In this document: in pieces, positions 18,504 through 56,815 of the stretch
How the letters are laid out: every line of letters begins with the position of its first letter
Position numbering within the stretch: position 1 is the stretch's first letter
DNA from: Rhodococcus sp. P-2
Lineage (GTDB): Bacteria; Actinomycetota; Actinomycetes; Mycobacteriales; Mycobacteriaceae
Assembly: GCF_016598535.1 (NCBI RefSeq)
Contig: NZ_CP066779.1
Location: forward strand, 4,400,053 to 4,464,052
Reading direction: 5' to 3'
Length of the DNA: 64,000 nt
Translations under genes and position numbers: made by a program
The notes under the pieces: generated by a model
Seen by the model: the letters and a program-made list of their open reading frames with translations, nothing else
What the model was told of the DNA's origin: nothing
The model's database searches: none

Positions 18504-18512
18504 ATTTTCCAG

Positions 18513-20742: not shown

Positions 20743-20752
20743 GTCAGGAATG

Positions 20753-20774: not shown

Positions 20775-20791
20775 GACATGTCAGTTTCTGA

Positions 20792-20851
20792 TGTGCAGTT
20801 CACGGGTGCGTGGTTCACAGATGCGCGGGTTCATGGTGTGCAGTTCACGAG
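20792..20851. repeat. Four tandem 15-bp units in the monooxygenase leader
   Basis: Four in-phase 15-mers follow each other: TGTGCAGTTCACGGG, TGCGTGGTTCACAGA, TGCGCGGGTTCATGG and TGTGCAGTTCACGAG. All share a TG-N5-GTTCA(C/T) core (N6 in the third). The array ends right at the ribosome-binding site of the monooxygenase gene. Confidence 0.75.
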
Positions 20852-20863
20852 AGGGATTCTCCG

Positions 20864-30000: not shown

Positions 30001-33000
30001 CGTTGCCATCTCACTCGTCTCGCGAGCGAAATCAGCCGGCGTCGTCTTCACCCCGCGCGATGTGTTCGAACGTAAGACCGTGGCTCGATTGGCCGAAATT
30101 GCGCGTCCGGTAGATGAATCCGTTGTGCTCGACGAATTGCCGGGTGGGGGAGTGGGGTTTGTCCCCCTGACCCCGATCGCTACCGAGATCCTGGGCACGG
30201 CCGGCAGCATCGATGCCTTCTATCAAGCCGTGTCAGTCAGTGTTCCTGCTGGAGTGAATCTTTCGCGTCTCGTCGCGACTCTGCAGGTGGTTGTCGATCG
30301 GCACGACGCGCTCCGTGCGCGCTTGCTGCCCGACCACTCCGGGCTCGACATTGCCCCGACCTGTGCCGTCGATACATGGGTTCGCCGAACGGTCACCGAC
30401 GCGGCACCCGGAAACCCGGAGTTCGAGGACGCTCTCACCGAGGCGACCGCAGACGCCGCCTCGAGGCTCGATCCGTACCGCGGCGTCACAGTTCAGATGG
30501 TCTGGCTCGATTCGGTGCTCGGTTCGGGCCGCTTGGTCATCGTCATCCACCATCTTGTCGTAGACGGTGTCTCCTGGCGGATTCTGCTTCCCGACTTCGC
30601 CGCTGCGTGGCAACAGATCATTGACGGTGGCACACCGGTATTGATGCCCGTCGGTACGTCACTGCGGCGTTGGTCGCACGGACTCGCCGACGTGTCACCG
30701 TCGGCGGAACTCGAGTACTGGCGAGAGGTCGTCGACTCCGCCGCTGCACTCTGTGGTTCGCGTCCACTCGATGCGGAACGGGACCGAGGGTCGTCACTCC
30801 GTAGGGTGCGGATCGACATCGACCACGGCATGACGGATCACTTGTTGCGCTCCGTGCCGTCGCACTATCGGAGCGGTGTCAACGACGGATTGCTCAGCGC
30901 ACTTGCCCTGGCAATACGCACCTGGAGCGGATCGCAGCGCGTGCTCGTCGCGCTCGAAGGTCACGGACGTGACGAAGACGTGCTGCCCGGCGCTGACCTG
31001 TCCCGGACCGTCGGTTGGTTCACAGCGGTGTACCCGGTCCGAATGGATCTCACCGGACTCGGAGCGGACGTACCTACGGTCGTGAAATCCGTCAAGGAAC
31101 AGCTGCGAGCTACACCCGGGTCCGGCATCGGGTACGGGCTGCTACGCCGTGCCGGGATGCTGACCGGTCCGGAGCCACAGATCGGTTTCAACTACCTGGG
31201 CAAACTGTCCACCGCGGAGTTCAGCGACGAACTGCGTTCCGCCGGCTGGATTCCCGATGCCGGAATCGATCTCAACAACGGCAGTGGAAGCGATCTCGCT
31301 GTCAGCCGTGCGATCGACATCAACGCCGCGGTCGTGGACGGACCGCACGGCGAATACCTTTCGGCGACATTCGCCTTCCCCGAAGGTATCTTCGAACCCG
31401 GAGTAGTCGAGGAGCTTGCACAGTCGTGGCGCGATGCCCTGGAGACGATTGTCGCCTCCGTCGGTGATCATGCCGGTCTCACACCGTCCGACGTGCCTCT
31501 GGTCTCGACGTCACAGGACGAAATAGAACTGTGGGAGAAGCGGTTCGGCCACCTGGAGGACATCTGGTCGCTCTCGCCGCTGCAAGCCGGATTCCAGTTT
31601 CACGCCGGCCTCACTGCCGATACAGTCGACGTCTACACCGGCCAGATCGTTCTGTCGCTGGCTGGAATCGTCGACAGCGAGCGACTACACCGGTCGCTCT
31701 CGAGATTGTTCGAGCGTCACGCCGCGCTTCGGACCGCCTTCGTCTACGACTCGAACGGCGTTGCAGCACAGCTCGTTCTCGATTCCGTGACAACTCCGTG
31801 GCGGGAGGTGCTCGGGGGTGACCCGCACGCCATCGCGGAACGAGAGCGTACGACGCCCTTCGATCTCACAACCCCTCCGCTGCTTCGTGCAGTTCTGGTG
31901 CGCGAGGGTTCGGACTCCGCGCACCTGATCGTCACCAATCACCACATTCTCTTCGACGGTTGGTCCATGCCGTTGTTGGTGCGCGATCTACTTTCGCTCT
32001 ACGCCGCCGACACATCGCTCTCGGCTCCTGCTCGGTCGTACCGCACGTATCTGGACTGGCTGGCCGAACAAGACAACGGCGAGGCATTGGAACGGTGGAC
32101 CGGCGCGCTGGCGGGGGCGGACGAACCGATGCTGATCGCACCGCACCGCGCCGAATCCTCCGTGCACGCAGTTCCCGTGGACGTCGACGTCCCGCTGGAA
32201 GCCTCGTCGACCGAGGCCGTCGTCGCGTTGGCCAAGCGCACCGGGGTCACGGTCAACACCGTCGTCCAGACAGCATGGGGCCTGCTGCTGGGTGGAATGC
32301 TCGGGCGTGACGACGTCGTGTTCGGCGCCACCGTCTCCGGTCGACCCGCGTCGCTGACCGGGGTCGAAGACATTCTCGGCCTGTTCATCAACACCGTCCC
32401 CGTTCGCGTCCGCGTGGACCCGGACGGTTCGGTTTCCGAACTGCTCGAACAAGTTCAGTCCGAGCAGGTCCGGTTGCTCGACAGCCATCACGTCGGTCTT
32501 GCCGAGGTGCAGTCGGCGGTGGGCGCCGGCGCGGTGTTCGACACGTTGACGGTGTTCGAGTCGTATCCCGTGGATCGTTCGGCGCTCGAATCCGCGACGG
32601 ACATCGCCGGGATGCGCATCACGGGTATCGAGGTCGCAGACGCGACTCATTACCCGCTGGCGCTGGTCACCGTCCTCGAACCGAGCCTCCGTCTCACCAT
32701 CGAGTACGCACCCGACGCAATGGACCACGACGCCACGGTGCGTCTGGGCGGACGTCTCGCATCGATACTTGCTGCGATGACCGAGGAGAGTGTCCGCATC
32801 CGGGACATCGACTCTCTCGACGATGCCGAACGTCGGCTCGTGCTCGACGAGTGGAACAACACTTCCCACCCTGTGGTCGATGCGACGCTGCTCGATCTGA
32901 TCTTCGCCGACGCTGACGTCGCCGACATGTCCGGTGCTGCAATGACCTTCGGAGACGCGACGGTCAGCTACCGTGAATTCCGTGCCCAGGTCAACTCTCT

Positions 33001-36000
33001 TGCTCGCCACCTCGTCGACTGTGGGGTCGGGCCCGAGTCTCTCGTTGCGATCGCGCTGCAACGAAGTGCGCATTACGTGGTCGCGGTCCACGCCGTCATC
33101 GCCGCAGGTGGAGCGTATCTTCCGATCGATCCGAAACACCCGGGTGAGCGGATCCGGCATGTGCTCGACATAGGAGCACCATCGGTAGTGCTGTCGATGA
33201 CGGCCGATGCCGCATCTCTGCCTGCGGAGATCGAGCCGGTGCTTCTCGACGAGATCGATCTTTCGGGGTACTCCACCGACCGGATCGAGGACGTCGAGCG
33301 TTCCGGTCACGTATCTCCGGATCACGTTGCCTACGTGATGTTCACGTCCGGGTCCACCGGGAAACCCAAAGGTGTTGCAGTCTCGCATCGTGCGATAGTC
33401 AATCGCCTGCTGTGGATGCAACATCAATACCCGCTCTCGCCTCGGGATGTCGTGCTGCACAAGACGCCGGCCACCTTCGACGTTTCGGTGTGGGAGTTGT
33501 TCTGGCCGTTCGTCACCGGTTCGAGGCTGGTCGTAGCCGAACCCGACGGACACCGCGATGCGCGTTACCTGTCGGAGTTGATCGCTCGCGAAGGTGTCAC
33601 CACCTTGCACTTCGTCCCGTCGATGCTCGACGTCTTTCTCGTCGACGGAGATCTCTCGCAACTCGAGTCCGTTCGAAGGGTGTTCGCAAGCGGTGAGGCA
33701 CTTCCGCGTGCGACGGTGAGTCGCTTCCACGAACGAATCGGTGCAGATCTGCACAATCTCTACGGTCCCACCGAAGCTGCCGTGGACGTGACGTTCCACG
33801 AGACGGATTCCGCGGCAACGGGCCCGGTGCCGATCGGTGCTCCGGTCTGGAACACTCGAACCTACGTGCTGGATCAGCGCCTGACGCCCAGCCCGATAGG
33901 AGTTCCGGGAGAGCTGTATCTCGCGGGAGTGCAGCTCGCCCGTGGCTACGTGGATCGTCCTGATCTGACTGCAGATCGCTTTGTGGCCAACCCTTTCGGC
34001 ACTGGGCGCTTGTACCGCACCGGTGACCTCGTCATGTGGAATGCCCGTGGTGAGATCGAGTATCTCGGGCGTACCGATTTTCAGGTGAAGCTTCGCGGAC
34101 AGCGCTTGGAACTCGGCGAGATCGACGCCGTCCTGCTGGAACTCACGGGCATTCTCTCCGCCGTCACCGTCGTACACGAGGATCGCCTGGTCGCTTACGT
34201 CACTGCTGAATCGGCAACCGACACTGCGCTTCTCGCCGCTCATGCGCGGGCGAAGTTGCCCACCTACATGGTCCCCTCCGTCTTCGTGATCTTGTCGTCG
34301 ATGCCGCTCGGTCCGAACGGTAAACTTGACAGGCGAGCTCTGCCGGAACCGGATGTGGCTGCAGGAGAATACGTCGCTCCGTCCTCCGAATCCGAAAAAG
34401 CCATTGCGGCAATCTTTTCCGAGCTCCTCGGAGTGGACCGTATCGGCGTCACCGCCGACTACTTTGTCCTCGGTGGCAACTCGCTCACGGCTACGCGGGC
34501 CGTGGCGCGGATAAATTCGGCGCTGGGATCCTCGCTGGGTGTTCGAGAACTGTTCGATGCTCCGACGGTCGGGGCGCTGGCTGAACTTGTCGCAGACGGT
34601 GATCGGCCCACGGGCACAGGGCTCGCTCCACGGCAACGACCGGAACAAATTCCGCTCTCACCGGCCCAGCAGAGAATGTGGTTCCTCAACCGTTTCGATC
34701 CGGAATCCGGGGCATACAACATTGCGGCAGCACTCTCGCTGTCGGGCGACCTGAACGTCCAGGTTCTGCACCAGGCGATCAGCGACGTCGTCAACCGGCA
34801 CGAGGTGCTGCGAACTCTCTATCCTGATTCGGAGCAGGGGCCGTACCAGCGCATTCTCGACGAGGTGCCGGTCGATCTCGAACCGGTGGATGTCAGTGAC
34901 CCAGTCGCGGTGATCAGCGAAGTGGTCGGCAGCGGGTTCGACGTCACCACTGAGGTCCCCGTGCGGGTCGCGCTTCTGCGGTCCTCTGGGCGGGAGCACG
35001 TTCTTGTTCTGGTCGTTCACCACATCAGCGGCGACGGGTGGTCGATGCAGCCACTGGCCGCGGACGTGATGACGGCATACGCATCGAGGTTGGCGGGCGA
35101 GGCGCCGCAGTGGACGCCGTTGAGTGTCCACTACGCGGACTACACGCTCTGGAAGATCGATTCTCTCGGCGACGAGGACGATCCGCGGTCGGAGGCGTCA
35201 CGGCAGATCGACTACTGGCGCGGCGCATTGACGAACGTGCCGACTCGCCTCGATTTCCCCACGGACCGAACGCATCCGCCCGTCGCCTCGTATCGCGGAG
35301 GGACGGTGTCGTCGGCAGTTTCCGCTCAGACCTACAGCGCCGTGGAAACCCTGGCTCGCAGCACTCGATCCACACCGTTCATGGTCCTGCACTCCGCATT
35401 GTCGGTTCTGCTGTCCCGGATGGCGGGGGAGACCGACATCGCGATCGGCACCCCGGTCAGCGGACGCGGCGATCGGACCCTCGACAATCTCGTCGGCATG
35501 TTCGTCGGGACCGTGGTTCTTCGGACACAAGTGGATCCGGCCGCAACTTTCCGCGCACTGCTCGAGACGACCCGCAACGCCGACCTCTCGGCATTTGCCC
35601 ACGCCGACATTCCCTTCGAGCGTCTGGTGGAGGTGCTCGACCCGCCTCGTTCGTCGGCGCACCATCCCCTCTTCCAGGTAGTACTCGCCACCGGCGATAT
35701 TCCGACTCCATCCGTGCAGCTTCCCGGCCTTACCGTCTCTCAGGTCGCGTTGGATGCGAGGATCTCGAAATTCGATCTCCAACTGGATGTGTCGTCTCCG
35801 GGCCCGGACGGGTCGGTGACCACGACGTGGACCTATGCAGTCGACATCTTCGACGAACCGACCGTGCGCGAGATCGCGGCTCGGTTTGCCGCCGTTCTCG
35901 ACACTGTCGTCGCTGAACCGGAATCAGTGGTCGGTGACCTCGATCTGCGGACGTTGCCAGAGATCGAACGCCAGGAAGCTGCAGATACGGTCGCTCTGGC

Positions 36001-39000
36001 AGAACTGACGCTGCCGGAGATACTTGCTGCCGGCGTCAGCAGGTCGAACGGCGGTTCGGCGTTGCTGTGCGGCGACCTCGAACTCTCGTACGACGACGTA
36101 GACCGGCGCACCAATCGGTGGGCGCGGGCACTCGTCGCGCAAGGAATCGGTCCCGAATCGGTAGTGGCGATTGCCATTCCACGATCTGCGACGTCCGTCC
36201 TCGCGACCTGGGCCGTCGCCAAGACCGGAGCCGCTTTCGTACCCGTCGACCCGAGTTACCCGGCCGAGCGTATCGAGCACATGCTCACCGATTCGGGTGC
36301 AGTCCTGACGCTGACCGACGACGTGGCGGTGTCATTGGATCGCGCCGATGTCGGCGACGCTCGACTCGTCGACTCCGAACGCACGTCACCGATTCGGATG
36401 GATAACACCGCGTACGTCATCTACACGTCGGGATCGACCGGCGTTCCCAAGGGCGTCGCCGTCTCGCATGCGGGGCTGGCGGCGTTGGTCGGCGAACAGG
36501 TTCGACGATACGGACTCGACAACCGCAGTCGCACCATGCATTTCGCCTCACCGAGCTTCGATGCTTCGGTGCTCGAACTGGCCATGGCCGTTGGTGCGGG
36601 CGCCGCGATGCTTGTTGTTCCCACCGGAGTTTACGGCGGTGCCGAGCTGGCAGATCTCATGCGCGCGTCGAAGATCACCCATGCGTTCGTGACCCCGGCA
36701 GCTCTGGCCACGGTCGAACCGGCGGACGTTCCCGATCTGGGTGTCGTGATCGTCGGGGGTGAAGCGTGCGACGCTGCGTTGGCCGCGCTGTGGGCACCGA
36801 CACGAAAGATGTTCAACGCGTACGGTCCCACCGAGTCCACCGTCATGGCTACCCTCGCGGGACCCATGTCGGCGACCGATCGGATCACCATCGGTAGTCC
36901 CGTTGTCGGGACCGTCGCACATGTTCTCGACTCTCGCCTCCGTCCCGTTCCGGACGGTGTGACAGGTGAGCTGTATCTGAGCGGGCGTGGACTGGCCCGC
37001 GGTTACCACCGTCGCGGCGACCTGACGGCAGCTCGATTCGTTGCCGATCCCGCACGCTCGGGCCTGCGGATGTACCGCACCGGCGACCTCGTGCGACGTC
37101 GTGGAACGGAACTCGAGTATCTCGGCCGTAGCGATTCACAGGTCAAGATTCGTGGGTTCCGCATCGAACTCGGTGAGATCGACGCAGTGCTCGCCGTGCA
37201 CGCGGGCGTGCGAACTGCGGTGACGACCGCACACCAGACCGACGGGCTGCACTCGTACGTCGTTGGTGAGTATCTGGACCCGGAGGAAGTACGCACCTTC
37301 GTCTCCAGTCTGCTACCCGCACATATGATTCCGGACTCCGTGATCGTCGTCGAGGAGATTTCGCTGACACCGGCCGGCAAAGTCGATTACCGAGCACTAC
37401 CCGCGCCCACGATGCACCGGAACGCGTTCGTCGCACCGGTTACGAAGACGGAGACGTTGATCAGCCGGATCTTCGGCGACGTTCTGGATGTCGACCAGGT
37501 GAGCGTGGTGGACGACTTCTTCGACCTCGGTGGAAACTCGCTGAGCGCTACCCGAGTGATGGGACGAGTCGGCACCGAACTCTCGGTTGCCCTCCCGGTT
37601 CGGGTCCTCTTCGACGCCAGGACAGTCGCGGCGCTCGCTGCGGCAGTCGACGGAGCGCACCGCAGTACCCGCCTCACTCTGACGGCCGGGCCCAGGCCGG
37701 ATCGGATCCCGCTCTCGCCCGCGCAATCACGAATGTGGATTCTCAATCGATACGATCCCACCTCACCCGCATACAACATCCCGCTCGTCCTTCGCCTGCG
37801 CGGGCAGCTCGATTCCTCAGCTTTGCGAGAAGCGCTGTCGGACATCCTTCTTCGTCACGAATCCCTGCGAACCATCTTCCCCGAAGACGCAGCTGGGCCC
37901 TATCAGTCCGTTCTCGGAGATGCCGACATACCCTTCCGTCACACGGTGGTTTCTCCCGAACAGGCTGCCGACCTGATTGTCGACGCTCTGAGCGAGGGCT
38001 TCGACGTCACCCGGGAAATCCCGTTGCGGGTGAATCTGTTCGAACTCTCGGCCGACGAACACATCCTGGCCGCCGTGGTTCACCACATCGCCGCGGACGG
38101 TGCGTCAGTGGCGCCGCTCGCTCGGGATCTGGTTCTCGCCTACTCGGCACGCCGTTCGGGAGCAGAGCCGTCGCTGACGCCCCTGGTAGTTCAGTATCCC
38201 GACTACAGCGTGTGGCAGCACCAGGTCCTCGGTTCGGAAAGTGACCGGACCAGTGTTGCTTCGAGGCAGGCCGAGTACTGGCGTGACCAGTTGGCCGGAG
38301 CGCCGGAGCTTCTCGAACTGCCCACCGATTTCCCGCGGCCGGCGATTGCGTCGTTGCGCGGAGCGAGCACCGAACTGGTGCTGACGTCCGAGATGGCCGG
38401 CGCTGTGAAGCAGGTGGGTCGCGCGCACGGAGCCACGCCATTCATGGTGCTTCATGCGGCCCTCGCGGTTCTTCTGTCCAACCTCGCCGCGACCGATGAC
38501 GTGGTGATCGGGACACCGATTTCCGGACGCGGCGAACCGGCGCTGGACGACGTGGTCGGAATGTTCGTCGGCACGGTGGCCCTGCGTAGCCGTCTCACGC
38601 CGGCGATGTCGTTCCTGGATTTGTTGGCCCAGGTGCGAGCCACCGACCTCGCTGCATTCGAGAATGCGGACCTACCGTTCGAGCGGCTGATCGACATTCT
38701 GCAACCCCCTCGATCCCAGGCCCACGCGCCGATATTCCAGGTGGCACTCTCGCAAGAGCAGGAGGGAACCGCGGCATTCGCGCTGCCCGGCCTCGAGATC
38801 GAGGCCGTGGAGAACGCAGTCGTGCCCTCGAAGTTCGACATCCAGGTCACGATGGTCGAGCACGCTGATTCGATGAATCTCACCTGGACCTACGCCACAG
38901 ATCTCTTCGCCGGCGAGTCCGTGGACGGATTTGCGGAGCGGTTCCACCGGATTCTCGCGCAGATTGTGGAGGCTCCCGACACGGCCGTCGCTGATATCGA

Positions 39001-42000
39001 CGTACTGGCCGAGGACGAATACACCAGGCTCACGTCCGTATTCGGTCCGCCTGCGCCAACAGTTCGCACCCTGGCGGATCTTCTGACCCTGCATTCGGAA
39101 TCCGAGAGTGTGGCTATCGTCTCCGAGTCGTGTGTCGAGATGACGTACAGCGAGCTGGATTTGCGATCCTCGCAGCTGGCTCGTCTCCTCATCGAGCGCG
39201 GAGCAGGCCCCGAAACGACTGTCGCAGTTTCCCTTCCGCGATCGGCTGAATCCATTCTCGCGCTGTGGGCCGTGGCCAAGACGGGCGCAACGTACGTTCC
39301 GGTGGATCCGACATACCCCGACGAGCGCATCGCTCACATGCTGAGAGACTCCGGTGCGCGGGCCGTCGTCACCGACTCCGTGACGGCGCCGACACTTCCG
39401 AACGGAATCGACACGATCGAGGTCGACGATCTCGATCTCGATCGATATTTCGCAGGGAAGGTCACCGATGTCGATCGGATCCGTCCACTGCACGTCGATC
39501 AGGTTGCCTACCTGATCTACACGTCAGGCTCGACCGGTCTCCCCAAGGGGGTCGCCGTCACTCACCGCGGACTGTCCGTGTTCTCCGCCCGCACCCGCAC
39601 CGATCTGGCGGTATCGCGAGACTCTCGGGTATTACGACTGTCTTCCGCGAGTTTCGACGCCTCGATGTTCGAGATGATCCTCGCGTTCACTGCCGGTGCG
39701 ACGATGGTGGTCGCTCCGCCGACGGTCATCGCCGGTGACGAACTCACCGACGTGATCCGGCGTCACCACATCACTCACGTGGTGACAGCGCCGGCGGCGA
39801 TGACGACCGTCGATGCGACTACGCTCGCCGACCTCGAAACTGTGGTGCTCGGTGGCGACGTTTTCCCACCACAACTGCTCGACCGTTTTCACGACACGAC
39901 ACGACTCTTCAACAGCTACGGACCGACTGAGAGCACCATCGTCATCACCAAGACCGGGGCTCTCCCCGAGACTGCGGCGCTGTTCGGTGACGGTGTACAA
40001 GGAGGTGACCGTTCACTCGCGTCCGTCACGATCGGCACACCGCTCGAAGGCGTCCACGTTCTGGTCCTCGATTCCACCCTCAATCCCGTCCCCGTCGGGG
40101 TCAGGGGTGAGCTGTATCTGTCGGGCCCAGGGCTGGCTCGCGGGTATCACCGACGCGAGGGGTTGACCGCAGAACGCTTCGTCGCGAACCCGTTCGGGGC
40201 ACCGGGCGCGCGTATGTACCGGACCGGTGACGTGGTCACCTGGACCGGCCAGGGCGAACTGGCCTACTTCGGACGATCCGACGCCCAGGTTCAGCTTCGC
40301 GGGCTCCGCATCGAACTGGGAGAGATCGAATCGGCTCTCGCCTCCGTCCGCGGAGTGATCGCCTCCGCTGCCACCGTTCACCGGCATGACTCTCTCGGCG
40401 ATCAACTCGTCGGTTATGTCACCGTCACAGATGCGGTGTCGGCGGAGCAGATCCTCGACGTCGTCGCAGCGGTGTTGCCCCGAGCCTCGGTGCCCACTAC
40501 TGTCGTCCTGCTGGATTCGCTACCCCTGACTCCGGCCGGGAAGCTCGATCGCGCAGCACTTCCCGTTCCGGAGTTCATCGCCTCGGCGACGTTCCGGGCG
40601 CCGACGACACTCGCGGAGATCCGTGTCGCGAGTGCTTTCGCCGACGTTCTCGGTACCGACACCGTCGGAGCAGAAGACAGTTTCTTCGAGCTGGGTGGAA
40701 ACTCGCTCAGTGCCACACGGGCGATTGCCCGCGTCAACGCTTCGTTCGGGGTCAAACTCGGTGTTCGTGCGCTGTTCGAGGCACCCTCTGTCGCAGAACT
40801 GGCTCTGCTGGCGGGCTCGGCGGAACGCGATGACCAGCCTCGATTGGAAGCGCGACCGCGACCCGAACGTATTCCGCTCTCGCCGGCGCAGACTCGGATG
40901 TGGTTCCTCAATCGATTCGACGCCGCGGCTGCCACGGACAACCTACCGCTCGCGCTTCGTCTGAGCGGCACCCTGGACGCGTCTGTACTGGCGCTTGCGC
41001 TTCGTGACGTCGTCGAACGTCACGAGTCGTTGCGTACCTACTATCCCGACACCGCGGACGGACCCCGTCAGGAGATCCTGTCCGCGTCGTCGGTGGATCT
41101 CGATCTGGTTCAGCACGACGTCACCGACGCCGAAGCGCTGGAACGGCTCTTCGCTCTGGCCGGCGCCGGATTCGACGTGACGACTGCTGTACCGCTGCGG
41201 ACCGCTTTGTATCGAATCTCCGAGACCGAGCATGTGCTCGCCGTCGTGATGCATCACATCGCATCGGACGGATCGTCACTCGGGCCCCTGGCAGCCGACG
41301 TCATGGGCGCCTATGTCTCGCGTTCTACGGGTGACGCTCCGCAGTGGGAGCCGTTGCCCGTTCAGTACGCGGATTACGCTCTCTGGCAACACGATCTGCT
41401 CGGAACCGAATCCGAACCTTCAGGTGTTGCTCAGGCGCAAATACAGTTCTGGACGTCCACGCTCGTCGGAATTCCGGACCAGTTGAATCTGCCGACGGAC
41501 CGGCAGCGTCCTGCCCGTCAGAGCTATCGGGGCAAGGAGATTCACTTCACGATCGGCTCGGACACCGCCGATCGACTGCGTGATCTCGCCGCCGGATCAG
41601 GCTCGAGCCTGTTCATGGTCGTCCACGCCGCGTTCGCAGTACTACTTGCAAGGCTGGGAGACAGCGCCGACATCACTATCGGTTCGCCCATAGCGGGACG
41701 TGGACACGAGTCGCTCGACGCGCTCGTGGGGATGTTCGTGAACACCTTGGCACTTCGAACCCAGGTGAACACGGCGGCGCCGTTCACGGAACTGCTCGAC
41801 CACACCCGCGATCAGGATCTCGCCGCCTTCGCGCATGCGGACCTGCCGTTCGAGAAGCTCGTCGAGATCATCGATCCCGTCAGATCGACGGCACGCCATC
41901 CGTTGTTCCAGGTGGCACTGTCCTTCCAGAACCTCACGCCGACGATGTTCGCGCTACCCGGACTGCAGATTGCGGCAGTTGGCGCCCCAGTCGAGACGGC

Positions 42001-45000
42001 GAAGTTCGATCTCCACCTGACAGTCACCCCGGGGGAGTCGGGTGCGATGTCGGCGTCGTTCACCTACGCGACGGATCTGTTCGACCAATCCACGGTGGCG
42101 ACATTCGCCAATCGCCTCCTGCGCGTGCTCGATTCGATCGGTCATGACCCGAACGTCACGGTAGGCGACATCGCTCTGCTCGGCGACGAAGAGATCGCGG
42201 CCACCGTCAAGACGTGGAACGACACCGACACCGTCGTTCCGGAGACAACCCTCGCGGATCTGTTCGACGCCCAGGTGCACAGAACACCGAACGCCGAAGC
42301 ACTGGTTTTCGGTGACCGTCGCCTGACCTATGCCGAGTTCGACGCCGAAAGCAATCGCCTGGCGCGATATCTGATCGGAATCGGTGTCGGCCCGGAAGTG
42401 ACTGTTGCGCTCAATCTTCGGCGTTCCGTCGAACTGGTCGTGTGCATGTACGCGGTGGTGAAGGCGGGCGGAGCCTACGTTCCTCTCGACCCGGATCAGG
42501 CGGCAGAACGCACGGCGCACATACTCGAATCCGCCGAGACCGCCGTTGTTCTGAACACTTCTCACGATTCAGTCGACGGGCCGTACCACGTCGTGGACGT
42601 CGACACACTCGAGCTGGACGGTATCGACGGGTCGCCCGTTCGGGACACAGAACGCCTCGCACCCCTGCACACGGACAACATCGCGTATGCGATTTACACC
42701 TCCGGATCCACCGGAAAGCCCAAGGGCGTAGCGATCTCCCATCGAGCGATCACCAATCAACTCTTGTGGAAGCAGGATCAGTTCCCTCTCGATGTCGATG
42801 ACCGTGTGCTCGTCAAAACCGCAGCCACCTTCGACCTGTCGGTCTGGGAGTACTGGTGGGCGTTGCAGACCGGTGCCTGCCTGATTCTCGCCGAGTCGGG
42901 AGCCCAGCAGGACGGTGACTACCTCACGTTGCTCATGGAGCGCGAACAGGTGACTACGCTGCATGCCGTTCCCTCGATGTTGTCACTGCTCAGTGCCTCC
43001 GCGCGTCGGCTGCCGAGTTCTCTGACCCGGATCCTGTGCATCGGTGAGGCACTGCCCGTACAGACCGCCAAGGATGTGCGAGATCAGAGTTCGGCGCAGG
43101 TCTACAACCTGTACGGCCCCACGGAGGCCGCGGTCAGCGTCACGGCACACCGAACGAGCGATGTCGACGTGGCGACTGTTCCGATCGGAACTCCCGCATG
43201 GAACACACGATTGCATGTACTCGACGACCGCCTTCATCCGGTTCCGGTCGGTGTTGCAGGTGAGCTCTATCTCGCCGGAGTTCAGCTGGCCCGTGGGTAC
43301 ATCGGGGATCCGGGGCAGAACGCGACTCGTTTCGTCGCCGATCCGAATGAAACGGGAGAGCGCCTCTATCGAACCGGCGATCTCGTTCGGTGGAATGCCG
43401 CGGGCAGTCTCGAATACCTCGAGCGTGCAGATTTCCAGGTCAAGGTTCGAGGCTTCCGCATAGAACTCGGTGAGATCGAAACAGCGTTGCGCGCCGAGCC
43501 GTCGATTCAGGATGCGGTAGTCACGGTCACGACGTCAGCCACCGGCGAGCAACACCTGGTCGGTTACGTTACCGCGGTCGAGGGTTCGACAGTCGAGAAG
43601 TCGGTGATCCTGACCCGACTGCGTGCCACCCTGCCCGGCTACATGGTGCCGACTGTCCTGATGACACTCCACGCCCTCCCCCTGGGGAGTACAGGCAAGG
43701 TGGATCGACAGGCGCTCCCGGAACCGATCTTCGAGGCACGTCGATTCCGCGCACCCACCACGCCTGCCGAACTGTCGGTAGCCACCGCTTTTGCCGAGAT
43801 CCTCGGTGACGGGAAGACCGACGAAGTGGGAGTCGACGACGACTTCTTCGAACGCGGCGGCAATTCGCTCAGTGCGACTCGGTTGCTCGGACGGATCAAC
43901 GCCGCGGTGGGCACCGACCTGCCCGTGCGTGTGGTCTTCGAGTCGCCCACCGTCGCAGCGTTGGCTGCAGTAGTGGAAACTGCCGAGCTTTCGCGGCGAC
44001 CCGCGCTGGGTTCGCAGCCGAGACCGGTGAGGATTCCGCTCTCACCGGCGCAGACTCGTATGTGGTTCCTCAACCGGTTCGATCCCGGTTCGTCGGCGTA
44101 CAGCATCCCGGTGGTTCTTCGATTCGTAGGTCCGCTGGATGTCGAGGCGCTGCGCGTGAGTGTCGCCGACGTGATCGCCCGTCACGAGATCTTGAGAACT
44201 GTGTACCCGGAGTACGACGGGATGGGATACCAAGAGATTGTCGAGGCACCTCAGGTTCCCGAGATCCTCGATGTCATTGCCATTGAAGAGAATTCGCTCC
44301 ACGACCTGCTGGTCGAGGTGCTCGGTGCGTCGTTCGACATCACGTCCGAAATTCCCGTGCGAGCTCATCTGTTCCAGCTCGACGAGTTCGAGTTCGTGCT
44401 GGCGATGTCGGTGCATCACATTGCGGGTGACGGTTTCTCGATGGGGCCGTTGACGCGTGATGTGATGGTTGCGTACGAGGCGCGGACCCGAGGGGTGGAG
44501 CCGTCGTGGTCGCCGCTCGAGGTGCAGTACGCGGATTACGCGTTGTGGCAGCTCGAGATGTTGGGTTCGGAAGAATCGTCGACCTCACTGATCTCGCGCC
44601 AGCTCGCGTTCTGGTCGGACACGCTCGACGGCTTGCCCTCCGTCCTCGAACTCCCGTTGGATCGGCCCCGCCCCGCGGTGGCTTCCGGTCGTGGATCGGT
44701 TCTGAACGCTCATCTCGAACCTGTCCTGCAACAGGCGATTTCCGATTTGGCTCGACGGCATCGCGCGACGCCTTTCATGGTGCTGCACGCGGCTCTGGCT
44801 GTTGTACTGTCGCGGTTCACCGGCAGTTACGACTTCGCCGTCGGGACGCCGACGGCCGGGCGCGGAGAACGCATGCTCGACGATGTGGTCGGCATGTTCG
44901 TCGGGACCGTGGTGTTGCGCACCAGCGTCGATCCAGATGAGCAGTTCCTCGACCTGCTGTCCCGCCTCCGCGACGCCGACCTCCAGGCTTTCGCTCACAG

Positions 45001-46651
45001 TGACGTGCCGTTCGAGCGTCTGGTGGAGTTGCTCGATCCGGTTCGCTCGCAGTCGTATTCACCGCTCTTCCAGGTCGGTCTCGCGCTGCAGAACCATCTC
45101 GATTTACGATTGACTCTCGACGGGCTGCATATCGAGAGCATCGAACCTACGGTGGTGAGCACCCAGGTCGACCTCGATTTTGTCGCGGCGGAACAGTTCG
45201 ACAACGACGGTCGACCTTCCGGGCTCGTCGTTCAGCTGACGTACGCCACGGATCTCTTCGAGGAATCCACTGCCTCACGCCTGATGCACGCGTTCGAGTC
45301 GGTCTTGACTACTGCTGTAGCAGAACCGGATCGGCGAGTGGAACTTTTCGCCGTGGAGTCTGTGGTTGAGCGTGGGTTGGTGTTGGGGGGTGTGAACGTT
45401 ACGGATCGTTGGGTTGAGGATGTGACGTTGGCGGATCTGGTGGCGGCTTCGGTTGAGGTGTCGTCGGCTGTGATTGTTGCGGGAGCTCGTACCCCGATGG
45501 GTCGACTCCTCGGATCGTTGAAAGACCTCTCCGGGTCCGACCTCGGCGGCATCGCCATCAAAGGCGCCCTCGACAAGTCCGGAGTCGCCCCCGAACACGT
45601 CGACTACGTCATCATGGGACAGGTCCTCACCGCCGGCGCCGGCCAGATGCCCGCCCGCCAAGCCGCCGTCGCCGCCGGCATCCCCATGAACGTGCCCGCC
45701 CTGACCATCAACAAAGTGTGCCTGTCCGGCATCGACGCCATCGCCCTCGCCGACCAACTCATCCGCGCCGGAGAATTCGACATCGTCGTCGCCGGCGGGC
45801 AGGAATCGATGTCCCGAGCACCACACATGCTCGAAAAAAGCCGCGAAGGCTTCAAATACGGCGACGTCACCCTGCGCGACCACATGGCCTACGACGGCCT
45901 CCACGACATCTTCACCGACCAGGCCATGGGCCTGCTCACCGAACAAGTCAACCAACAAGACTCCGCCCACATCACCCGCGAAGAACAGGACGCCTTCGCC
46001 GCCGCCTCACACCAGAACGCGGCCCGCGCCTGGAAAGACGGCTACTTCGACAACGAAGTCGTCCCCGTCTCCATCCCCCAACGCAAGGGCGAGCCGATCG
46101 TCTTCGCGCAGGACGAAGGCATCCGCGCCGACACCACCACCGAATCGCTCGGCAAGTTGCGTCCCGCGTTCAGCAAGGACGGCACCATCACCGCCGGCTC
46201 CGCCTCCCCGATCTCCGACGGCGCCGCCGCCGTGATCGTGATGAGCAAAACCAAAGCCGAAGACCTCGGCCTGACCTGGATCGCGGAAATCGGCGCCCAC
46301 GGCGTCGTCGCCGGACCCGACTCCACCCTCCAGTCCCAACCCGCCCGCGCCATCGCCAAGGCCTGCGCCAAGGAAGGCATCGACCCCACCGACCTCGACC
46401 TCGTCGAAATCAACGAAGCATTCGCCGCCGTCGGGATCGCCTCCACCCGCGAACTCGGCCTCGACCCCGCCAAGGTCAACGTCAACGGCGGCGCCATCGC
46501 CGTCGGACACCCCCTCGGCATGTCCGGCGCCCGCATCGCCCTGCACCTCGCCCTCGAACTGCAACGCCGCGGCGGCGGCATCGGCGCAGCCGCACTCTGC
46601 GGCGGCGGCGGACAAGGCGACGCACTCATCATCCGCGTCCCCAAGGTGTAA
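27068..46651 (+). CDS. Giant nonribosomal peptide synthetase fused to acetyl-CoA acetyltransferase
   Basis: 6527 aa from GTG27068. Domains by motif (residues approximate): C1 10-440 (HHLVLDG; starter-like start [14 protein letters not shown]), A1 450-940, T1 (Ser977, GGDS), E 1030-1475 (HHLVVDG, NYLGKLS), C2 1495-1930 (SPLQ, HHILFDG), A2 1935-2410, T2 (Ser2472), C3 2525, A3 2980, T3 (Ser3491), C4 3544, A4 4000, T4 (Ser4546), C5 4600, A5 5060, T5 (Ser5600), C6 5654-6100 (HHIAGDG). Then only the first residues of an A domain ([14 protein letters not shown]) and, from about 6131, a complete thiolase. My hand-read pocket codes are A1 DAFIVGSIVK, A2 DVWHFSLVDK (serine), A3 DALFIGAVMK, A4 DAFVVGSIVK, A5 DLWHLILVSK. 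All T serines and C/E His motifs are intact. There is no thioesterase or reductase. The E domain predicts a D-residue at position 1. Confidence 0.85.
45458..46651 (+). other. Thiolase (acetyl-CoA acetyltransferase) part of the fused frame, possibly a separate gene
   Basis: From [19 protein letters not shown] onward the sequence is a full-length (about 397 aa) thiolase. Cys6218 (NKVCLSG) is the acyl-accepting nucleophile, His6481 (VGHPLGMSG) and Cys6511 (ALCGGGG) the other active-site residues. Thiolases condense two acetyl-CoA or cleave beta-ketoacyl-CoA. GTG45458 could start it alone, but no clear ribosome-binding site precedes it. Codons switch from G/T-ending (about 45361-45490) to almost purely C-ending, like a highly expressed housekeeping gene, unlike the rest of the synthetase. 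Confidence 0.85.
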
Positions 46652-46666
46652 TCAGTTCCTGCTGAC

Positions 46667-46709
46667 CAGACAGGTCGCCGAGCCCTCATCGTGCTCGGCG
46701 ACCTGTCTG
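46667..46709. terminator. Strong hairpin after the NRPS-thiolase frame
   Basis: CAGACAGGTCGCCGAG (46667-46682) and CTCGGCGACCTGTCTG (46694-46709) are perfect 16-bp arms with an 11-nt loop, 15 bp after the stop and 13 bp before the end of the convergent BldC-like gene. No long T-run; probably a bidirectional terminator. Confidence 0.75.
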
Positions 46710-46722
46710 CTTCACGCCGGAG

Positions 46723-46938
46723 TCACGTCGGATCGAGTGTCGTCGAGCGGTTACGCAACAACTTCTCGATCTCCGACCGTCGGTATCTCCGATGTCCGCC
46801 AAGCGTTCTCAGCGTTCCGACTTTGCCCTCCCTCGCCCATCTCGATACCGTCGTCCGGTCGACGTGGAACAGTGCCGCAACCTGTTTGGTCGTCAGCCAC
46901 TCGTCGACTGGCGCTGTGTGCTCTTCTTCTCGGCTCAT
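46723..46938 (-). CDS. BldC-like / MerR-type helix-turn-helix DNA-binding protein
   Basis: 71 aa. EWLTTKQVAALFHVDRTTVSRWAREGKVGTLRTLGGHRRYRRSEIEKLL is a winged HTH of the excisionase/MerR type; the RTLGGHRRYR end is the hallmark of BldC, a small developmental regulator of Streptomyces. No phage or integrase gene is nearby, so a regulator is more likely than an excisionase. It is convergent with the NRPS-thiolase gene. Confidence 0.8.
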   Translation of the reverse strand: MSREEEHTAPVDEWLTTKQVAALFHVDRTTVSRWAREGKVGTLRTLGGHRRYRRSEIEKLLRNRSTTLDPT

Positions 46939-47049
46939 TGACAGGCATTCGTAGCCGCAGCCCGGATGGACGGGTCCGATAACGAATTGGCTACCCCAGG
47001 TGCGCTGTGAAAGACTGGCTGCAAAACTTTACTATTCCTTGGGGAAACT

Positions 47050-47457
47050 ATGTCGAAGTCGGTAACTCTGATCCGTTCCACATCACTCTCTTTGGTCGCT
47101 GAATATGCTTATGCAGCAACGGCTCCCACCGAAGCCAGACTGATCTTCCTCGCAGGATCTTGCCCGTTGAACGAGGACGGCTCTACTGCCGCCGTCGGCG
47201 ATTACGCGGGACAAGCAACCAAGGCCGTCGACAACCTGAGAACCGCTCTCTCGGACGCCGGCGCGTCGATCACCGATGTGATCAGCACCCGCGTTCTGGT
47301 GGCGTCGAGCAGTCAAGAAGACCTCGTTTCGGCGTGGGAGGTAGTCCGCGACGCGTTCGGCGATCATGACGCCCCGAGCACTCTGATGGGCGTGACCGTT
47401 CTCGGCTACGACGATCAGTTGGTCGAGATCGAGGCCATCGCGGCCGTCGTCGACTGA
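47050..47457 (+). CDS. RidA/YjgF family protein
   Basis: 135 aa. LIFLAGSCPLNEDGSTAAVGDYAGQATKAVDNLRTALSDAGASITDVISTRVLVAS and LVEIEAIAAV follow the Rid fold, including the conserved Arg in the STRV segment and the C-terminal Glu. RidA proteins hydrolyse reactive enamine/imine intermediates from PLP enzymes. ATG47050 follows GGGG at five bases. Confidence 0.85.
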   Translation: MSKSVTLIRSTSLSLVAEYAYAATAPTEARLIFLAGSCPLNEDGSTAAVGDYAGQATKAVDNLRTALSDAGASITDVISTRVLVASSSQEDLVSAWEVVRDAFGDHDAPSTLMGVTVLGYDDQLVEIEAIAAVVD

Positions 47458-47479
47458 GCTCGAACCGAACCGGACGTTC

Positions 47480-47749
47480 CTACCGGGGATCTTCGTGAGC
47501 CAGCGCCTGGTAGCCCTTTGCCCCCGCACGATCGACTGCGGCTCGCACAACAGCGAATATGGCCCCCTGTAGGGCTGCGGCGATCAGGACTTCCTTGCTC
47601 GACCTGCTCAAGTCTTTCGGCTCGGGCGCATTCTTGTCGTCACCGATGCGCTTCCACACCTGCTGGAAGACGGCGCCGGCCAAAATGCCGCCGAGGACGC
47701 TCGTCGCCAGTGAGAGTGGCTTGTACATCGCTTTCGATACTGCGCTCAT
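47480..47749 (-). CDS. DUF4235 family membrane protein
   Basis: 89 aa. MYKPLSLATSVLGGILAGAVFQQVWKRIG and KEVLIAAALQGAIFAVVRAAVDRAGAKGYQ are the two helices and joining segment typical of DUF4235, a small actinobacterial membrane protein of unknown function. GGAGG lies nine bases before ATG47749. Confidence 0.85.
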   Translation of the reverse strand: MSAVSKAMYKPLSLATSVLGGILAGAVFQQVWKRIGDDKNAPEPKDLSRSSKEVLIAAALQGAIFAVVRAAVDRAGAKGYQALAHEDPR

Positions 47750-47938
47750 TGCGCGGATCCTCCATGGTTCGATTTCGTACCGCCTGAGCGGGCTGACCGA
47801 CTCTCACTACCCCGCAGGCGAACTGTCGAAACATTGCACCGGCGCGCCGCGAAGTCGACTGTCGCACGTTATGTTCCACGGGTTTGCCACTTCGCGGGCC
47901 GGGTAGGATCGTCTTAGCGAAAGAAGGTTGTGTAAGTC

Positions 47939-48154
47939 ATGGAAAACTACAGAATCGAACTACCGGACGGTACAACGGTGATGGAAGATTTCGTCTCGGA
48001 TCGCGCCGCAATCGCATATGCGGTCGATCTGAATCACGGGTGCAGCGAGAAAGTATCGGTATTCCGTATCACCGACGAAGGGGAAACCATCCCGACTCGG
48101 ATGTGCCCCAAGCCGAATCCTGGTTCGCGGCGTCGCGCGCGAAGCGCCCGATAG
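47939..48154 (+). CDS. Small hypothetical protein
   Basis: 71 aa, MENYRIELPDGTTVMEDF..., ending in a basic tail (SRRRARSAR). AGAAGG precedes ATG47939 at a suitable distance and the codon pattern is coding-like. The family is not recognised; the beta-strand-rich start and the conserved-looking RIELPDG motif suggest a small soluble domain. It converges on the AI-2E permease gene. Confidence 0.5.
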   Translation: MENYRIELPDGTTVMEDFVSDRAAIAYAVDLNHGCSEKVSVFRITDEGETIPTRMCPKPNPGSRRRARSAR

Positions 48155-48161
48155 AGGCCGG

Positions 48162-49319
48162 TCAAGAAGCGTCGAGGCGGGGGAAGAGCGTTTCTCTTGC
48201 GAGTAGCAGCAGGGCCGCAGCAACCGGAATCGCCAGCAACGCACCGACAATACCGAGCAGCGCTCCGCCCAACAGAACCGCGACAACGGTCACCAGTGCC
48301 GGGACCGCCACTGTCTTCCCGATGATCTTCGGAACAAGCAGGTAGTCCTCGAGCAGGCGTAACGCGATGAAGAACGCAACTGTCGCCAATGCCGTTGGGA
48401 CAGAGACTGTCAGGGAGACCAAGGCGACGATGACCCCTGCGATCGTGGAACCGACTATCGGGATCAGATCGAGCAGGGCGACCAGCAGCGCCAGTATCAA
48501 CGGGTACGGCACGTCGAAGATCAACAACCATGCGAAGGTACATCCTGCGGTGATCACGGAGATCAGAACATTGCCGAGGACGTACCCACCCACGCCTGCC
48601 AGTATCTGATCACCGATGGCGATTGCTCGTGGCCGCCGCGAATGTGGCACCAACCGATACAGATTCGTGCGGATTCGTGGATAGTCGATCAAGAAGTACG
48701 TGGTCAGTACAGCAACGATTCCGGCGTCGGCGACTGCGCTGAACACCGCCCGCCCGGCACCGAGCAAACCCGTTGCGAGCGCAGAACCCGAACCGTCCAG
48801 TTGCGTGGTGAGGTGCTGCTCGAGGTGATACTTCTCGTCGAGGTCGCTGACGATGGGATACCGGTCCCGAATGTGCGTCAGAAGTTCTGGAGCGTGCGAT
48901 GCGAACTGACGCCCCTGCTCGACCAGCGGGGTGATCGCAGCAACGAGAAACAGCGCCAACATCACGGCAATCCCGAACAGCACCACGGTGACCGCGATCC
49001 AGCGTCGGAAATTTCTCCGCTCCAGCCAGACGATCACCGGTTCTATGCCCACCGCGAGAAACAGGGCCACCACGATCAGGATCAGCATGCCTCGCGCCGC
49101 AAGCAGCACTTCGATCACCGCGTAAGTCACGGCAACTCCGGCAGCGGCGGTCAGACCGATGAAGAACGGTGAACGACGATCGAACCTCGGTCCGGGTTCA
49201 CCCAGCGGCCGGACGGGCGTCGCCAATGCGGCGGCTTCGCGTTCGGCCACCGCCATCGGATCCGGAGCTTGGACTTCGCTTTCGGGGTCGGGTGACGTGT
49301 CCGCGGAATTGGGATCCAT
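48162..49319 (-). CDS. AI-2E family (UPF0118) transporter
   Basis: 385 aa from ATG49319, preceded by GAGG at eight bases; an in-frame GTG at 49409 would add 30 residues and overlap the upstream gene. After about 80 hydrophilic residues come eight membrane helices. LPHSRRPRAIAIGDQILAGVGGYVLGN-type sequence and LIPIVGSTIAGVIVALVSL match the conserved core of the family, whose members include the TqsA autoinducer exporter and Na/H antiporters. Substrate unknown. Confidence 0.82.
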   Translation of the reverse strand: MDPNSADTSPDPESEVQAPDPMAVAEREAAALATPVRPLGEPGPRFDRRSPFFIGLTAAAGVAVTYAVIEVLLAARGMLILIVVALFLAVGIEPVIVWLERRNFRRWIAVTVVLFGIAVMLALFLVAAITPLVEQGRQFASHAPELLTHIRDRYPIVSDLDEKYHLEQHLTTQLDGSGSALATGLLGAGRAVFSAVADAGIVAVLTTYFLIDYPRIRTNLYRLVPHSRRPRAIAIGDQILAGVGGYVLGNVLISVITAGCTFAWLLIFDVPYPLILALLVALLDLIPIVGSTIAGVIVALVSLTVSVPTALATVAFFIALRLLEDYLLVPKIIGKTVAVPALVTVVAVLLGGALLGIVGALLAIPVAAALLLLARETLFPRLDAS

Positions 49320-49383
49320 CCAAGCCACCTCACGATCCGCGCGACTTCCCGGCTCGAGGGTGAGTACCCGTGCCGTAGTCGGA

Positions 49384-49860
49384 TCAACCTCGAGGCTTCT
49401 CCGCTCCACTTCGTGTCAGCGCGAGCCCGGTTCCCACAACTCCGATGATCGACACAGCGATGGCGATGCTCGGCCAGCCGTCACTCTGCCAGTAGACGTC
49501 GTCGAGAGTGATCAGTAACGCGGCCTCGTCGACGATGAGTCCGAGCGCAATGCCCAACGCGATGCCCATCCATGTTCGTGCGCGAGGGCTTCGGTCGACG
49601 AGTCCGAAGATCGCCACCCCCGCCAACAGGAGAATTCCCCACAAGTAGTGGTGCAGATGAGTGCCGCCGGCACTGATGTCGCCGACATCCCTGGTGTCGA
49701 TCTGGATCAACCACGTCACCAGACGTGCTCCGCCGAACGTCAGCGTGAAGGCCACCCACGCCAACACCAAACCGCGACGTGATTCGTCAACTTGATTCCA
49801 TCTGCGAGGGAATCTGAATCTCTCGGCAGATTTCTCTTCGTCATGATCTCGAGAAAGCAT
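49384..49860 (-). CDS. Conserved membrane protein with HLHHYLWG motif
   Basis: 158 aa, four hydrophobic segments (LVLAWVAFTLTFGGARLVTWLI, LWGILLLAGVAIFGLV, WMGIALGIALGLIVDEAALLI, IAIAVSIIGVVGTGLAL). The His-rich GGTHLHHYLWG loop and the acidic VDEAALLI helix are conserved-looking and could form a metal or proton site, but no function is known to me. It is directly upstream of the AI-2E permease on the same strand. Confidence 0.65.
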   Translation of the reverse strand: MLSRDHDEEKSAERFRFPRRWNQVDESRRGLVLAWVAFTLTFGGARLVTWLIQIDTRDVGDISAGGTHLHHYLWGILLLAGVAIFGLVDRSPRARTWMGIALGIALGLIVDEAALLITLDDVYWQSDGWPSIAIAVSIIGVVGTGLALTRSGAEKPRG

Positions 49861-49931
49861 GCTTCATGTTTACCCGACGCCGATCAGAGTGATGATATCG
49901 GGTAGAGACACCGAAAAGCTATTGAAGAACG

Positions 49932-49970
49932 AAAAAGCGGTACTCGATCTCCGAAGAGACCAAGTACCGC
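49932..49970 (-). terminator. Rho-independent terminator with UUCG loop
   Basis: Read on the minus strand: GCGGTACT, an inner stem GGTCTC-TTCG-GAGATC, AGTACCGC, then five T. A stable tetraloop hairpin followed by a U-run, about 26 bp after the stop of the 51-aa gene. Confidence 0.9.
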
Positions 49971-49996
49971 CTTCTCAGCTACTCGCCCAGTATCGA

Positions 49997-50152
49997 TCAA
50001 TACCAGACTTTTCGTCCGCCCACTGCACGCCCGGTAGCACCGAGGATGGACAAAACTGCACCTACGACGACCAAGATGATGCCGACGGTGGTCAGAATAC
50101 TCAACCCCGTGAAGAAGCCGATCAACGCCAGAATAATGCCGAGAACAATCAT
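49997..50152 (-). CDS. 51-aa hydrophobic protein, DUF6131-like
   Basis: ATG50152 to the TGA at 49997. Sequence MIVLGIILALIGFFTGLSIL then TTVGIILVVVGAVLSILGATG and a polar tail GRAVGGRKVWY: two membrane helices. The pattern matches DUF6131, a short actinobacterial membrane protein family. GAGG lies seven bases upstream and a perfect intrinsic terminator lies just downstream, so it is a monocistronic gene. Too short for usual length cut-offs. Confidence 0.85.
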   Translation of the reverse strand: MIVLGIILALIGFFTGLSILTTVGIILVVVGAVLSILGATGRAVGGRKVWY

Positions 50153-50438
50153 GTGAGAACCTCATCCGGTATGCGTATAAAAATGATCTACTCAACTGAC
50201 GCTACTACAAAAACGTCACATTCTATAAATCCGATAATTGACGTCGTAAATACTGAACTCGTATCACTACCCAATAGTCTCGACGTTAAAACATCAGCGT
50301 TTTCCTCTGCTCACCCGCTACCTTTTCGCCGGGCAGTGCTAGGTGAAAATTCGAAGATTCGAAACAGGGTGCGGCGGCCTGGTTCTCTGCACAGTTCAGC
50401 AGGGAACTCAGCGCTGGGTTGCAGGACAGGAAGCCGTT
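50153..50438. other. AT-rich intergenic region
   Basis: 286 bp, clearly richer in A/T than its surroundings (for example around 50170-50310), with no credible reading frame. It must hold the promoter of the 51-aa gene (minus strand). I see no confident -35/-10 pair. Confidence 0.6.
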
Positions 50439-50984
50439 TCAGTTCTCCTCGTGAGTGACTTTATCGGCGATGCGTTCGGCGACAGCACGGCGCAATTCCG
50501 GGGTCAGCCGCTCGGCGGTCAGGGACTCGTAGAGCCACAGTCCGTCAGCTGCGAGACGGGCGATGAACTGGTCTATCGCTCCCGAATCGTCGAGGTCTGT
50601 GGTGGGGGGTAAAGCCCACCGCTCCAGCACTGCGTCCCACGGCGCCGCATGCTCGGAATTTGTCGAACCTTCGAGCATGAAGAGAAGCTCGGCCCGTGTG
50701 GCACTGTGGGCCGCGACGCGGGTGTAGGCAGTGAGCCGCTCGACGGGAGTGGCCTGGGAAGCGGCCTTTCCTGCCGCTGCGGACAAACCCGCTTCCCACT
50801 CGTCGGCGAGGTGCTGATGGATCGCCTGGACGAGATCTTCACGGGATGCGAAGTGGTAGAGAAGTCCACCTTTGGTCAGGCCGGCTTCGGCCGCGACGGA
50901 ATCGAAGGTGACGCTCTTGACGCCTTCGCGCTCCACGACTCGAGTTGCCGCTTCGAGGATCTGGGTTCGTTTACTGGTTCGCAC
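50439..50984 (-). CDS. TetR family transcriptional regulator
   Basis: 181 aa from GTG50984. HTH at about 22-46: VTFDSVAAEAGLTKGGLLYHFASREDLVQAI, the LTKGGLLYHF form common in regulators of efflux genes. It follows the MFS gene by 40 bp on the same strand and is most likely its repressor, acting at the palindrome upstream of that gene. Confidence 0.88.
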   Translation of the reverse strand: MRTSKRTQILEAATRVVEREGVKSVTFDSVAAEAGLTKGGLLYHFASREDLVQAIHQHLADEWEAGLSAAAGKAASQATPVERLTAYTRVAAHSATRAELLFMLEGSTNSEHAAPWDAVLERWALPPTTDLDDSGAIDQFIARLAADGLWLYESLTAERLTPELRRAVAERIADKVTHEEN

Positions 50985-50999
50985 GGGATTTCCTGGGTC

Positions 51000-51031
51000 G
51001 AAGTGTCAGTGGCGATTGGAAGTGTCAGTGG
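51000..51031. repeat. 13-bp direct repeat, period 19, at the end of the MFS gene
   Basis: GAAGTGTCAGTGG occurs at 51000-51012 and 51019-51031. The second copy contains the MFS stop codon (minus strand, 51025-51027). Confidence 0.8.
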
Positions 51032-52524: not shown

Positions 52525-52549
52525 TCCGAAGCCTCTCCAAAAGTTCCGA

Positions 52550-52589
52550 GACTCATAACTGTACCTTACGGAAGGTACAGTTATGAGTC
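52550..52589. promoter_or_regulatory. Perfect 18-bp-arm palindrome, TetR operator candidate
   Basis: GACTCATAACTGTACCTT (52550-52567) and AAGGTACAGTTATGAGTC (52572-52589) are exact reverse complements around ACGG. It ends 25 bp before the MFS start, where the promoter should be, and is long enough for two TetR dimers. Confidence 0.8.
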
Positions 52590-52722
52590 CCGGTACCCGA
52601 AGGCAACATTGACGGACCTTTATGGTGACGTGCGTTCAATCGAATACGGAAGCACGGCGGCGAAGACACACCCTTGAGAACATTCTCGAAATACATAGTT
52701 GCACAAGGCTTTCGACCCTCCT

Positions 52723-56764: not shown

Positions 56765-56815
56765 TCGCCCTCACCGGCCGACCTGACCGGCTGTGCACTG
56801 CGGTGATAAGTTCCT

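What the first reader, a model, noticed from the sequence alone, without database searches (positions are those of the whole stretch)
45355..46651. NRPS reading frame runs straight into a complete thiolase
Seen: after the sixth condensation domain the adenylation domain stops within about 15 residues ([14 protein letters not shown]) and a full-length thiolase with intact Cys6218, His6481 and Cys6511 follows in frame, with no stop or linker. Codon third positions change abruptly from G/T-rich (about 45361-45490) to nearly all C. Known: NRPS lines normally end in TE, reductase or terminal C domains; I know of no thiolase terminus. Inference: this is either a new fusion whose thiolase supplies or releases an acyl group, a deletion between an NRPS segment reading like VIVAGAR and the thiolase start, or an assembly chimera in a repetitive gene.
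Basis: partly seen in the sequence, partly recalled or inferred. Interest (0 to 1): 0.85.

Follow-up and report, generated by a model that had tools for sequence, protein, structure and literature searches.

The report
Assembly chimera, not NRPS-thiolase fusion
The apparent giant peptide-making enzyme that ends in a thiolase is almost certainly a sequence-assembly mistake: the broken end of a peptide synthetase gene was glued to an ordinary metabolic gene that exists in two nearly identical copies.

Summary
The letters are as reported: one open frame (27068-46651) runs from NRPS domains into a complete thiolase. The join at 45467/45468 is almost certainly an assembly artefact. The first 121 bases of the thiolase part (45468-45588) occur three times in this genome: after the NRPS; as the last 121 bases of its only contig, behind an ordinary ribosome site and GTG start; and behind a 3-oxoacid CoA-transferase pair, where they run within two bases into 5S rRNA. 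The thiolase 3' end also occurs a second time, fused to a DUF222 gene. In relatives G010 and G015 both thiolase genes are intact: copy A = CoA-transferase genes, thiolase, this window's downstream sequence; copy B = the contig-end flank, thiolase, the flank behind the DUF222 fusion. So all four edges of a two-copy gene are mis-joined here, without Ns, with overlaps of about 121 bases, as expected of stitched short-read contigs. In G015 the regions on the two sides of the join lie about 2.25 Mb apart. No listed match in 40 relatives spans the join. The NRPS sequence stops at the start of an adenylation domain; its continuation was not found, and the nearest relative's contig breaks 130 bases earlier. 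Not a real feature.

The parts
27068..45467 (+). NRPS gene, 3' end missing: frame up to the first residues of an A domain after the last C domain
   Evidence: Pfam domains; collinear with G010 contig C34 up to window 45337, where that contig ends
45338..45467 (+). C-to-A linker with G/T-rich third positions; last bases of the NRPS contig, not present in the G010 contig
   Evidence: homologous linkers in public genomes run on into an A domain
45467..45468 (.). false join between two contigs
45468..45588 (+). 121-base shared 5' end of the thiolase genes, three exact copies in the genome
45468..46651 (+). thiolase gene (acetyl-CoA C-acyltransferase family, TIGR01930 over its cut-off) without its true first codons; copy A position by its downstream flank
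46469..46646 (+). 178-base 3' end of the thiolase, second copy (one difference, at base 123) at C1:3912327-3912504 fused to a DUF222 gene
46647..50302 (+). downstream flank of thiolase copy A in G010 and G015

Best explanation
The single contig in which this Rhodococcus genome is held is a set of shorter contigs joined end to end without gap letters. The genome carries two almost identical thiolase genes that the assembler did not resolve, so contigs broke at the edges of these genes and share overlaps of about 121 bases there. At window 45467/45468 the contig that begins with the shared thiolase 5' end was placed behind a contig that ends at the start of an NRPS adenylation domain; the two happen to be in frame. 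In the cell the thiolase is most likely a free-standing enzyme encoded behind a 3-oxoacid CoA-transferase pair, and the NRPS goes on into an A domain (or ends shortly after a partial one) elsewhere. Shown: the repeated ends, the four mis-joined edges, the intact order in two relatives. Inferred: the kind of assembler, a k of about 121, chance of being in frame, the thiolase's function.
For: 121-base thiolase 5' end in three exact copies; one is the very end of the contig with a normal start, one runs into 5S rRNA. Second copy of the thiolase 3' end fused to DUF222. Intact copy A and copy B with the expected flanks in G010 and G015; copy B also in G008 and G011. Start contexts of both copies agree with those of the relatives. 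Shared stretch at the 5' edge 121 bases, at the 3' edge 122 bases before the first difference. The region left of the NRPS is at 3.54 Mb and thiolase copy A at 1.287 Mb in G015. Other joins of the same kind at rRNA: two 5S genes in this genome, in L011 and L009, with no large-subunit rRNA match in the 19 and 10 kb held, while in G011 (L044) the 5S follows 23S by about 155 bases. Contig begins inside an ABC-transporter ATPase and ends inside a thiolase.
Against: No reads were at hand, so the join was not tested directly. The genome is scored 100% complete with 0.03 contamination and is one contig without N in the stretches fetched. The reading frame is kept across the join and the residues VSS fit both sides. 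The overlap at the 3' edge is 122, not 121 bases. The missing NRPS continuation was not found. The small-subunit rRNA count, meant as a further test, was inconclusive.
Confidence: 0.97

Rival explanations
1. A genuine rearrangement in this strain: recombination placed the NRPS 3' end before the thiolase and made a real fused gene with a thiolase terminus.
For: The frame is open and in phase, all thiolase catalytic residues are intact.
Against: It does not explain the other three mis-joined edges of the same two genes, the thiolase start at the contig end, or the run into 5S rRNA. No listed match in 40 relatives spans the join (at most about 10 candidates scored per genome and the list was cut).
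Confidence: 0.015
2. A deletion between an intact NRPS and a neighbouring thiolase gene brought the two together.
For: The residues at the join (VSS before VIVAGAR) would fit either protein.
Against: In G015 the two regions are about 2.25 Mb apart and in G010 on different contigs, so they are not neighbours; a deletion leaves the extra copies of both thiolase ends unexplained.
Confidence: 0.005
3. The thiolase was inserted into the NRPS gene as part of a mobile element.
For: None found beyond the abrupt change in codon usage.
Against: The sequence from 45468 is collinear with the ordinary chromosomal locus of copy A in G010 and G015 as far as compared, to about 55393, apart from a 2.4 kb stretch; the NRPS does not resume after the thiolase in the window's frames.
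Confidence: 0.005

Closest known systems
Mis-joins at unresolved repeats in short-read (de Bruijn graph) assemblies
   Same: Breaks at the exact edges of a nearly identical two-copy gene and at rRNA; fixed overlaps of about 121 bases; several unrelated genes joined at these edges. Passages of PMC5368935 describe bias at a position equal to k from contig ends, caused by unresolved repeats.
   Different: Here the contigs are joined without N letters in the stretches seen, so the genome looks closed; the assembler and the value of k are inferred, not documented.
Acetyl-CoA C-acyltransferase (thiolase) behind 3-oxoacid CoA-transferase subunits A and B (TIGR01930, TIGR02429, TIGR02428)
   Same: Same protein family over the TIGR01930 cut-off, same flanks in G010 and G015; a free-standing start of a relative is seen in L099, Aldersonia.
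   Different: In this window the true first codons are replaced by the end of an NRPS sequence; the closest equivalog NF006086 is matched below its cut-off (489.7 against 526 bits), so the exact substrate is open.
NRPS termini (TE, reductase, terminal C domain; recalled)
   Same: Other NRPS frames in this genome carry a TE-like motif at the end or end in C plus a partial A.
   Different: A thiolase terminus is not supported here.

Membership tests
Assembly chimera at a collapsed repeat | The join coincides with the edge of a sequence repeated in the genome | tested here: met
   45468 is the first base of a 121-base stretch with three exact copies
Assembly chimera at a collapsed repeat | The orphaned partners of the join are found elsewhere in the same assembly | tested here: met
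   CoA-transferase flank + 121 bases at 5631468; contig-end flank + 121 bases at 6340015; 3' end + flank at 3912327. For the NRPS side the partner was not found
Assembly chimera at a collapsed repeat | Relatives show a different, unbroken order | tested here: met
   G010 and G015 for both copies, G008 and G011 for copy B
Assembly chimera at a collapsed repeat | No reads span the join | not testable with these tools
   no raw reads on hand
Thiolase (acetyl-CoA C-acyltransferase) | Thiolase_N and Thiolase_C domains and catalytic Cys, His, Cys | tested here: met
   Pfam, TIGR01930 457.9 bits against 240.55, residues 6218, 6481, 6511 (catalytic roles recalled)
Beta-ketoadipyl-CoA thiolase PcaF | TIGR02430 score over its cut-off | tested here: not met
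   322 bits against 597
NRPS with a thiolase terminus (proposed new fusion) | Fusion conserved in at least one other genome | tested here: not met
   No listed match spans the join in 40 relatives (list cut); only 1 of 27 other genus genomes has the NRPS end at E <= 1e-60, and its contig stops at window 45337

The most novel reading that the evidence does not exclude
The join is real in this strain: recombination fused a truncated NRPS to a complete thiolase, giving a megasynthase with a thiolase terminus that could release or extend the bound chain.
Probability: 0.015. Interest if true: 0.6.

Novelty: not a real feature. Interest (0 to 1): 0.05.

Why it matters
Mainly as a warning. A genome held as one gap-free contig and scored 100% complete contains several chimeras at repeat edges, two of which are open fusion frames (NRPS-thiolase, DUF222-thiolase). 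Read at face value they would enter databases of domain architectures and biosynthetic clusters. It also means that this NRPS lacks its true 3' end here, so a product predicted from it would be incomplete.

Tried and rejected
Search for the missing NRPS continuation. Places of carrier domains (61 at E <= 0.001) and condensation domains (75) in the genome were listed, and frames of ten regions were read for motif order (the 17 stretches plus the window and L009). Frames that start with an A domain without a C domain before it: 4626, 1975, 1329 and 851 aa; one of 6737 aa starts with a T motif. The 4626 and 1975 aa frames follow closely behind frames that end in C plus a partial A, and G010 contig C45 (bases 1-14000 read) shows a like pair. 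The 1329 and 851 aa frames have same-length frames in G010. None is a clear continuation, but none was excluded by experiment. A T-TE piece at the edge of G010 contig C9 was a candidate; of its first 2.2 kb this genome showed only one 98-base match, 71% identical, in another NRPS (40 of 76 candidates scored).

Repeats inside the NRPS as the cause of the break: direct repeats there are 62-78% alike and 45355-45467 has no close second copy (best other match 73% over 76 bases); rejected as the cause of the false join, so why the NRPS contig ends here is not explained.

Third-position change as proof of a chimera: rejected as sole proof. Of 82 comparable linkers 3 have 0.8 or more G/T at third positions and 0 have 0.9 or more.

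Small-subunit rRNA search, meant to show collapsed operons: 0 matches in G000, but also 0 in 2 of the other 6 genomes (G011, G003), with 19 candidates scored per genome; inconclusive.

Plasmid records: no match for the NRPS end. Papers: NRPS + thiolase domain + termination gave 1 paper, whose one thiolase passage concerns KS/thiolase overlap in annotation (passages seen); Rhodococcus + NRPS + misassembl gave 2 listings, not opened; the contig-overlap search gave 4 listings, of one of which passages were seen.

Full report
WHAT IS IN THE LETTERS. The frame 27068-46651 is open for 6527 codons. The change of third-position usage is real: at 45361-45466 97% of 36 third positions are G or T, and none of 1213 sliding 35-codon windows in the NRPS before it reaches that share.

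WHERE THE JOIN FALLS. The window lies at 4400053-4464052 of a genome of 6340135 bases held as one contig. A search of it with 45000-47000 gave three exact copies of 45468-45588 (121 bases) and a second copy, 99% identical, of 178 bases at the thiolase 3' end. Reading them: at 6340015-6340135 the 121 bases follow a ribosome-binding-like GGAGG and a GTG start, and there the contig stops. At 5631468-5631588 they follow the stop of a 3-oxoacid CoA-transferase subunit B gene (TIGR02428) overlapped by an ATG start, and two bases later comes a complete 5S rRNA, with no large-subunit rRNA match in the 19 kb held. At 3912327 the thiolase 3' end is fused to a DUF222 gene, a 418-aa open frame of DUF222 plus a piece of Thiolase_C.

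WHAT RELATIVES SHOW. The flanks were compared with stretches of four relatives. In G010 and G015 one thiolase gene (copy A) has the CoA-transferase flank upstream and this window's 46647-50000 downstream (91-93% identical), and the other (copy B) has the contig-end flank upstream and the flank behind the DUF222 fusion downstream (95-97%). G008 and G011 show copy B with the same two flanks (78-82%); their other copy has the CoA-transferase flank (79%) but no match to this window's downstream in the stretch held. Start contexts of both copies in G010 and G015 agree closely with those of this genome. Thus all four edges of the two genes are mis-joined here. Contig lengths of G010 (200338 and 27819) equal those of two Rhodococcus erythropolis NBRC 15567 records listed, so G010 is probably that strain and the window probably from a Rhodococcus near it (inference).

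THE SIGNATURE. The shared 5' stretch is 121 bases in both other copies; the shared 3' stretch is identical for 122 bases before its single difference. The extra base may be the last base of the preceding contig agreeing by chance (inference). Passages of PMC5368935 tie errors at distance k from contig ends to unresolved repeats. The contig starts inside an ABC-transporter ATPase and ends inside a thiolase, so it does not look like a closed replicon. Two 5S genes of this genome, in L011 and L009, stand without a large-subunit rRNA match in the 19 and 10 kb held. In G011 (L044) the 5S follows 23S by about 155 bases; in G015 (L040) the held stretch ends too close to the 5S to show it. The sequence before the 5S in L009 differs from that in both relatives and reads like a 16S leader (recalled), which suggests a skipped rRNA operon (inference).

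DISTANCE. Window 14900-20900, left of the NRPS, lies at 3535675-3541625 of G015 contig C1 (6405102 bases), and thiolase copy A at 1286984-1287516 of the same contig: about 2.25 Mb apart. In G010 they lie on contigs C34 and C2.

THE NRPS SIDE. G010 is the only one of 27 other genus genomes with this NRPS end at E <= 1e-60. It is collinear with the window, with small gaps, from 5274 to 45337, where contig C34 begins. So the natural continuation is an A domain. It was not found here. Some other NRPS proteins of this genome end in C plus a partial A and a stop, so whether the true gene goes on or stops soon after 45467 is open.

MECHANISM. The thiolase most likely works as an ordinary free-standing acyltransferase beside a 3-oxoacid CoA-transferase pair (family knowledge), and the NRPS has no thiolase terminus.

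LIMITS. No reads were available. One search scored about 10 candidates per genome and its list was cut, so 'no relative spans the join' rests on the rows shown. The SSU rRNA search was inconclusive.

Noticed in passing
L012 7254-8510 (C1:3911253-3912509): A second chimeric frame: DUF222 protein running in frame into the last 60 or so residues of a thiolase.
   Followed up: yes
L011 9469-9708 (C1:5631468-5631707): Thiolase 5' end running into a 5S rRNA with no large-subunit rRNA match in the 19 kb held.
   Followed up: yes
L009 4466-4585 (C1:6334601-6334720): A 5S rRNA without large-subunit rRNA match in 10 kb; the sequence before it differs from that of G011 and G015, which suggests another join at an rRNA operon.
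   Followed up: partly
L037-L044 (thiolase genes of G010, G015, G008, G011): Two thiolase copies per genome differ at 9, 4, 29 and 23 of 1179 bases, while the window's copy differs from theirs at 22 to 139: the copies look homogenised within each genome (gene conversion, inference).
   Followed up: partly
L122-L124 (C1:962254-1010846, minus strand): Three consecutive NRPS frames (9546, 4626, 1975 aa); the first two end in a C domain plus a partial A and the next starts with an A domain, possibly a docking arrangement; a like pair in G010 C45.
   Followed up: no
window 50303-52718: About 2.4 kb present here and absent at the same place in G010 and G015.
   Followed up: no
window 56805-56985: Cobalamin riboswitch, + strand (RF00174, 98.6 bits).
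   Followed up: no
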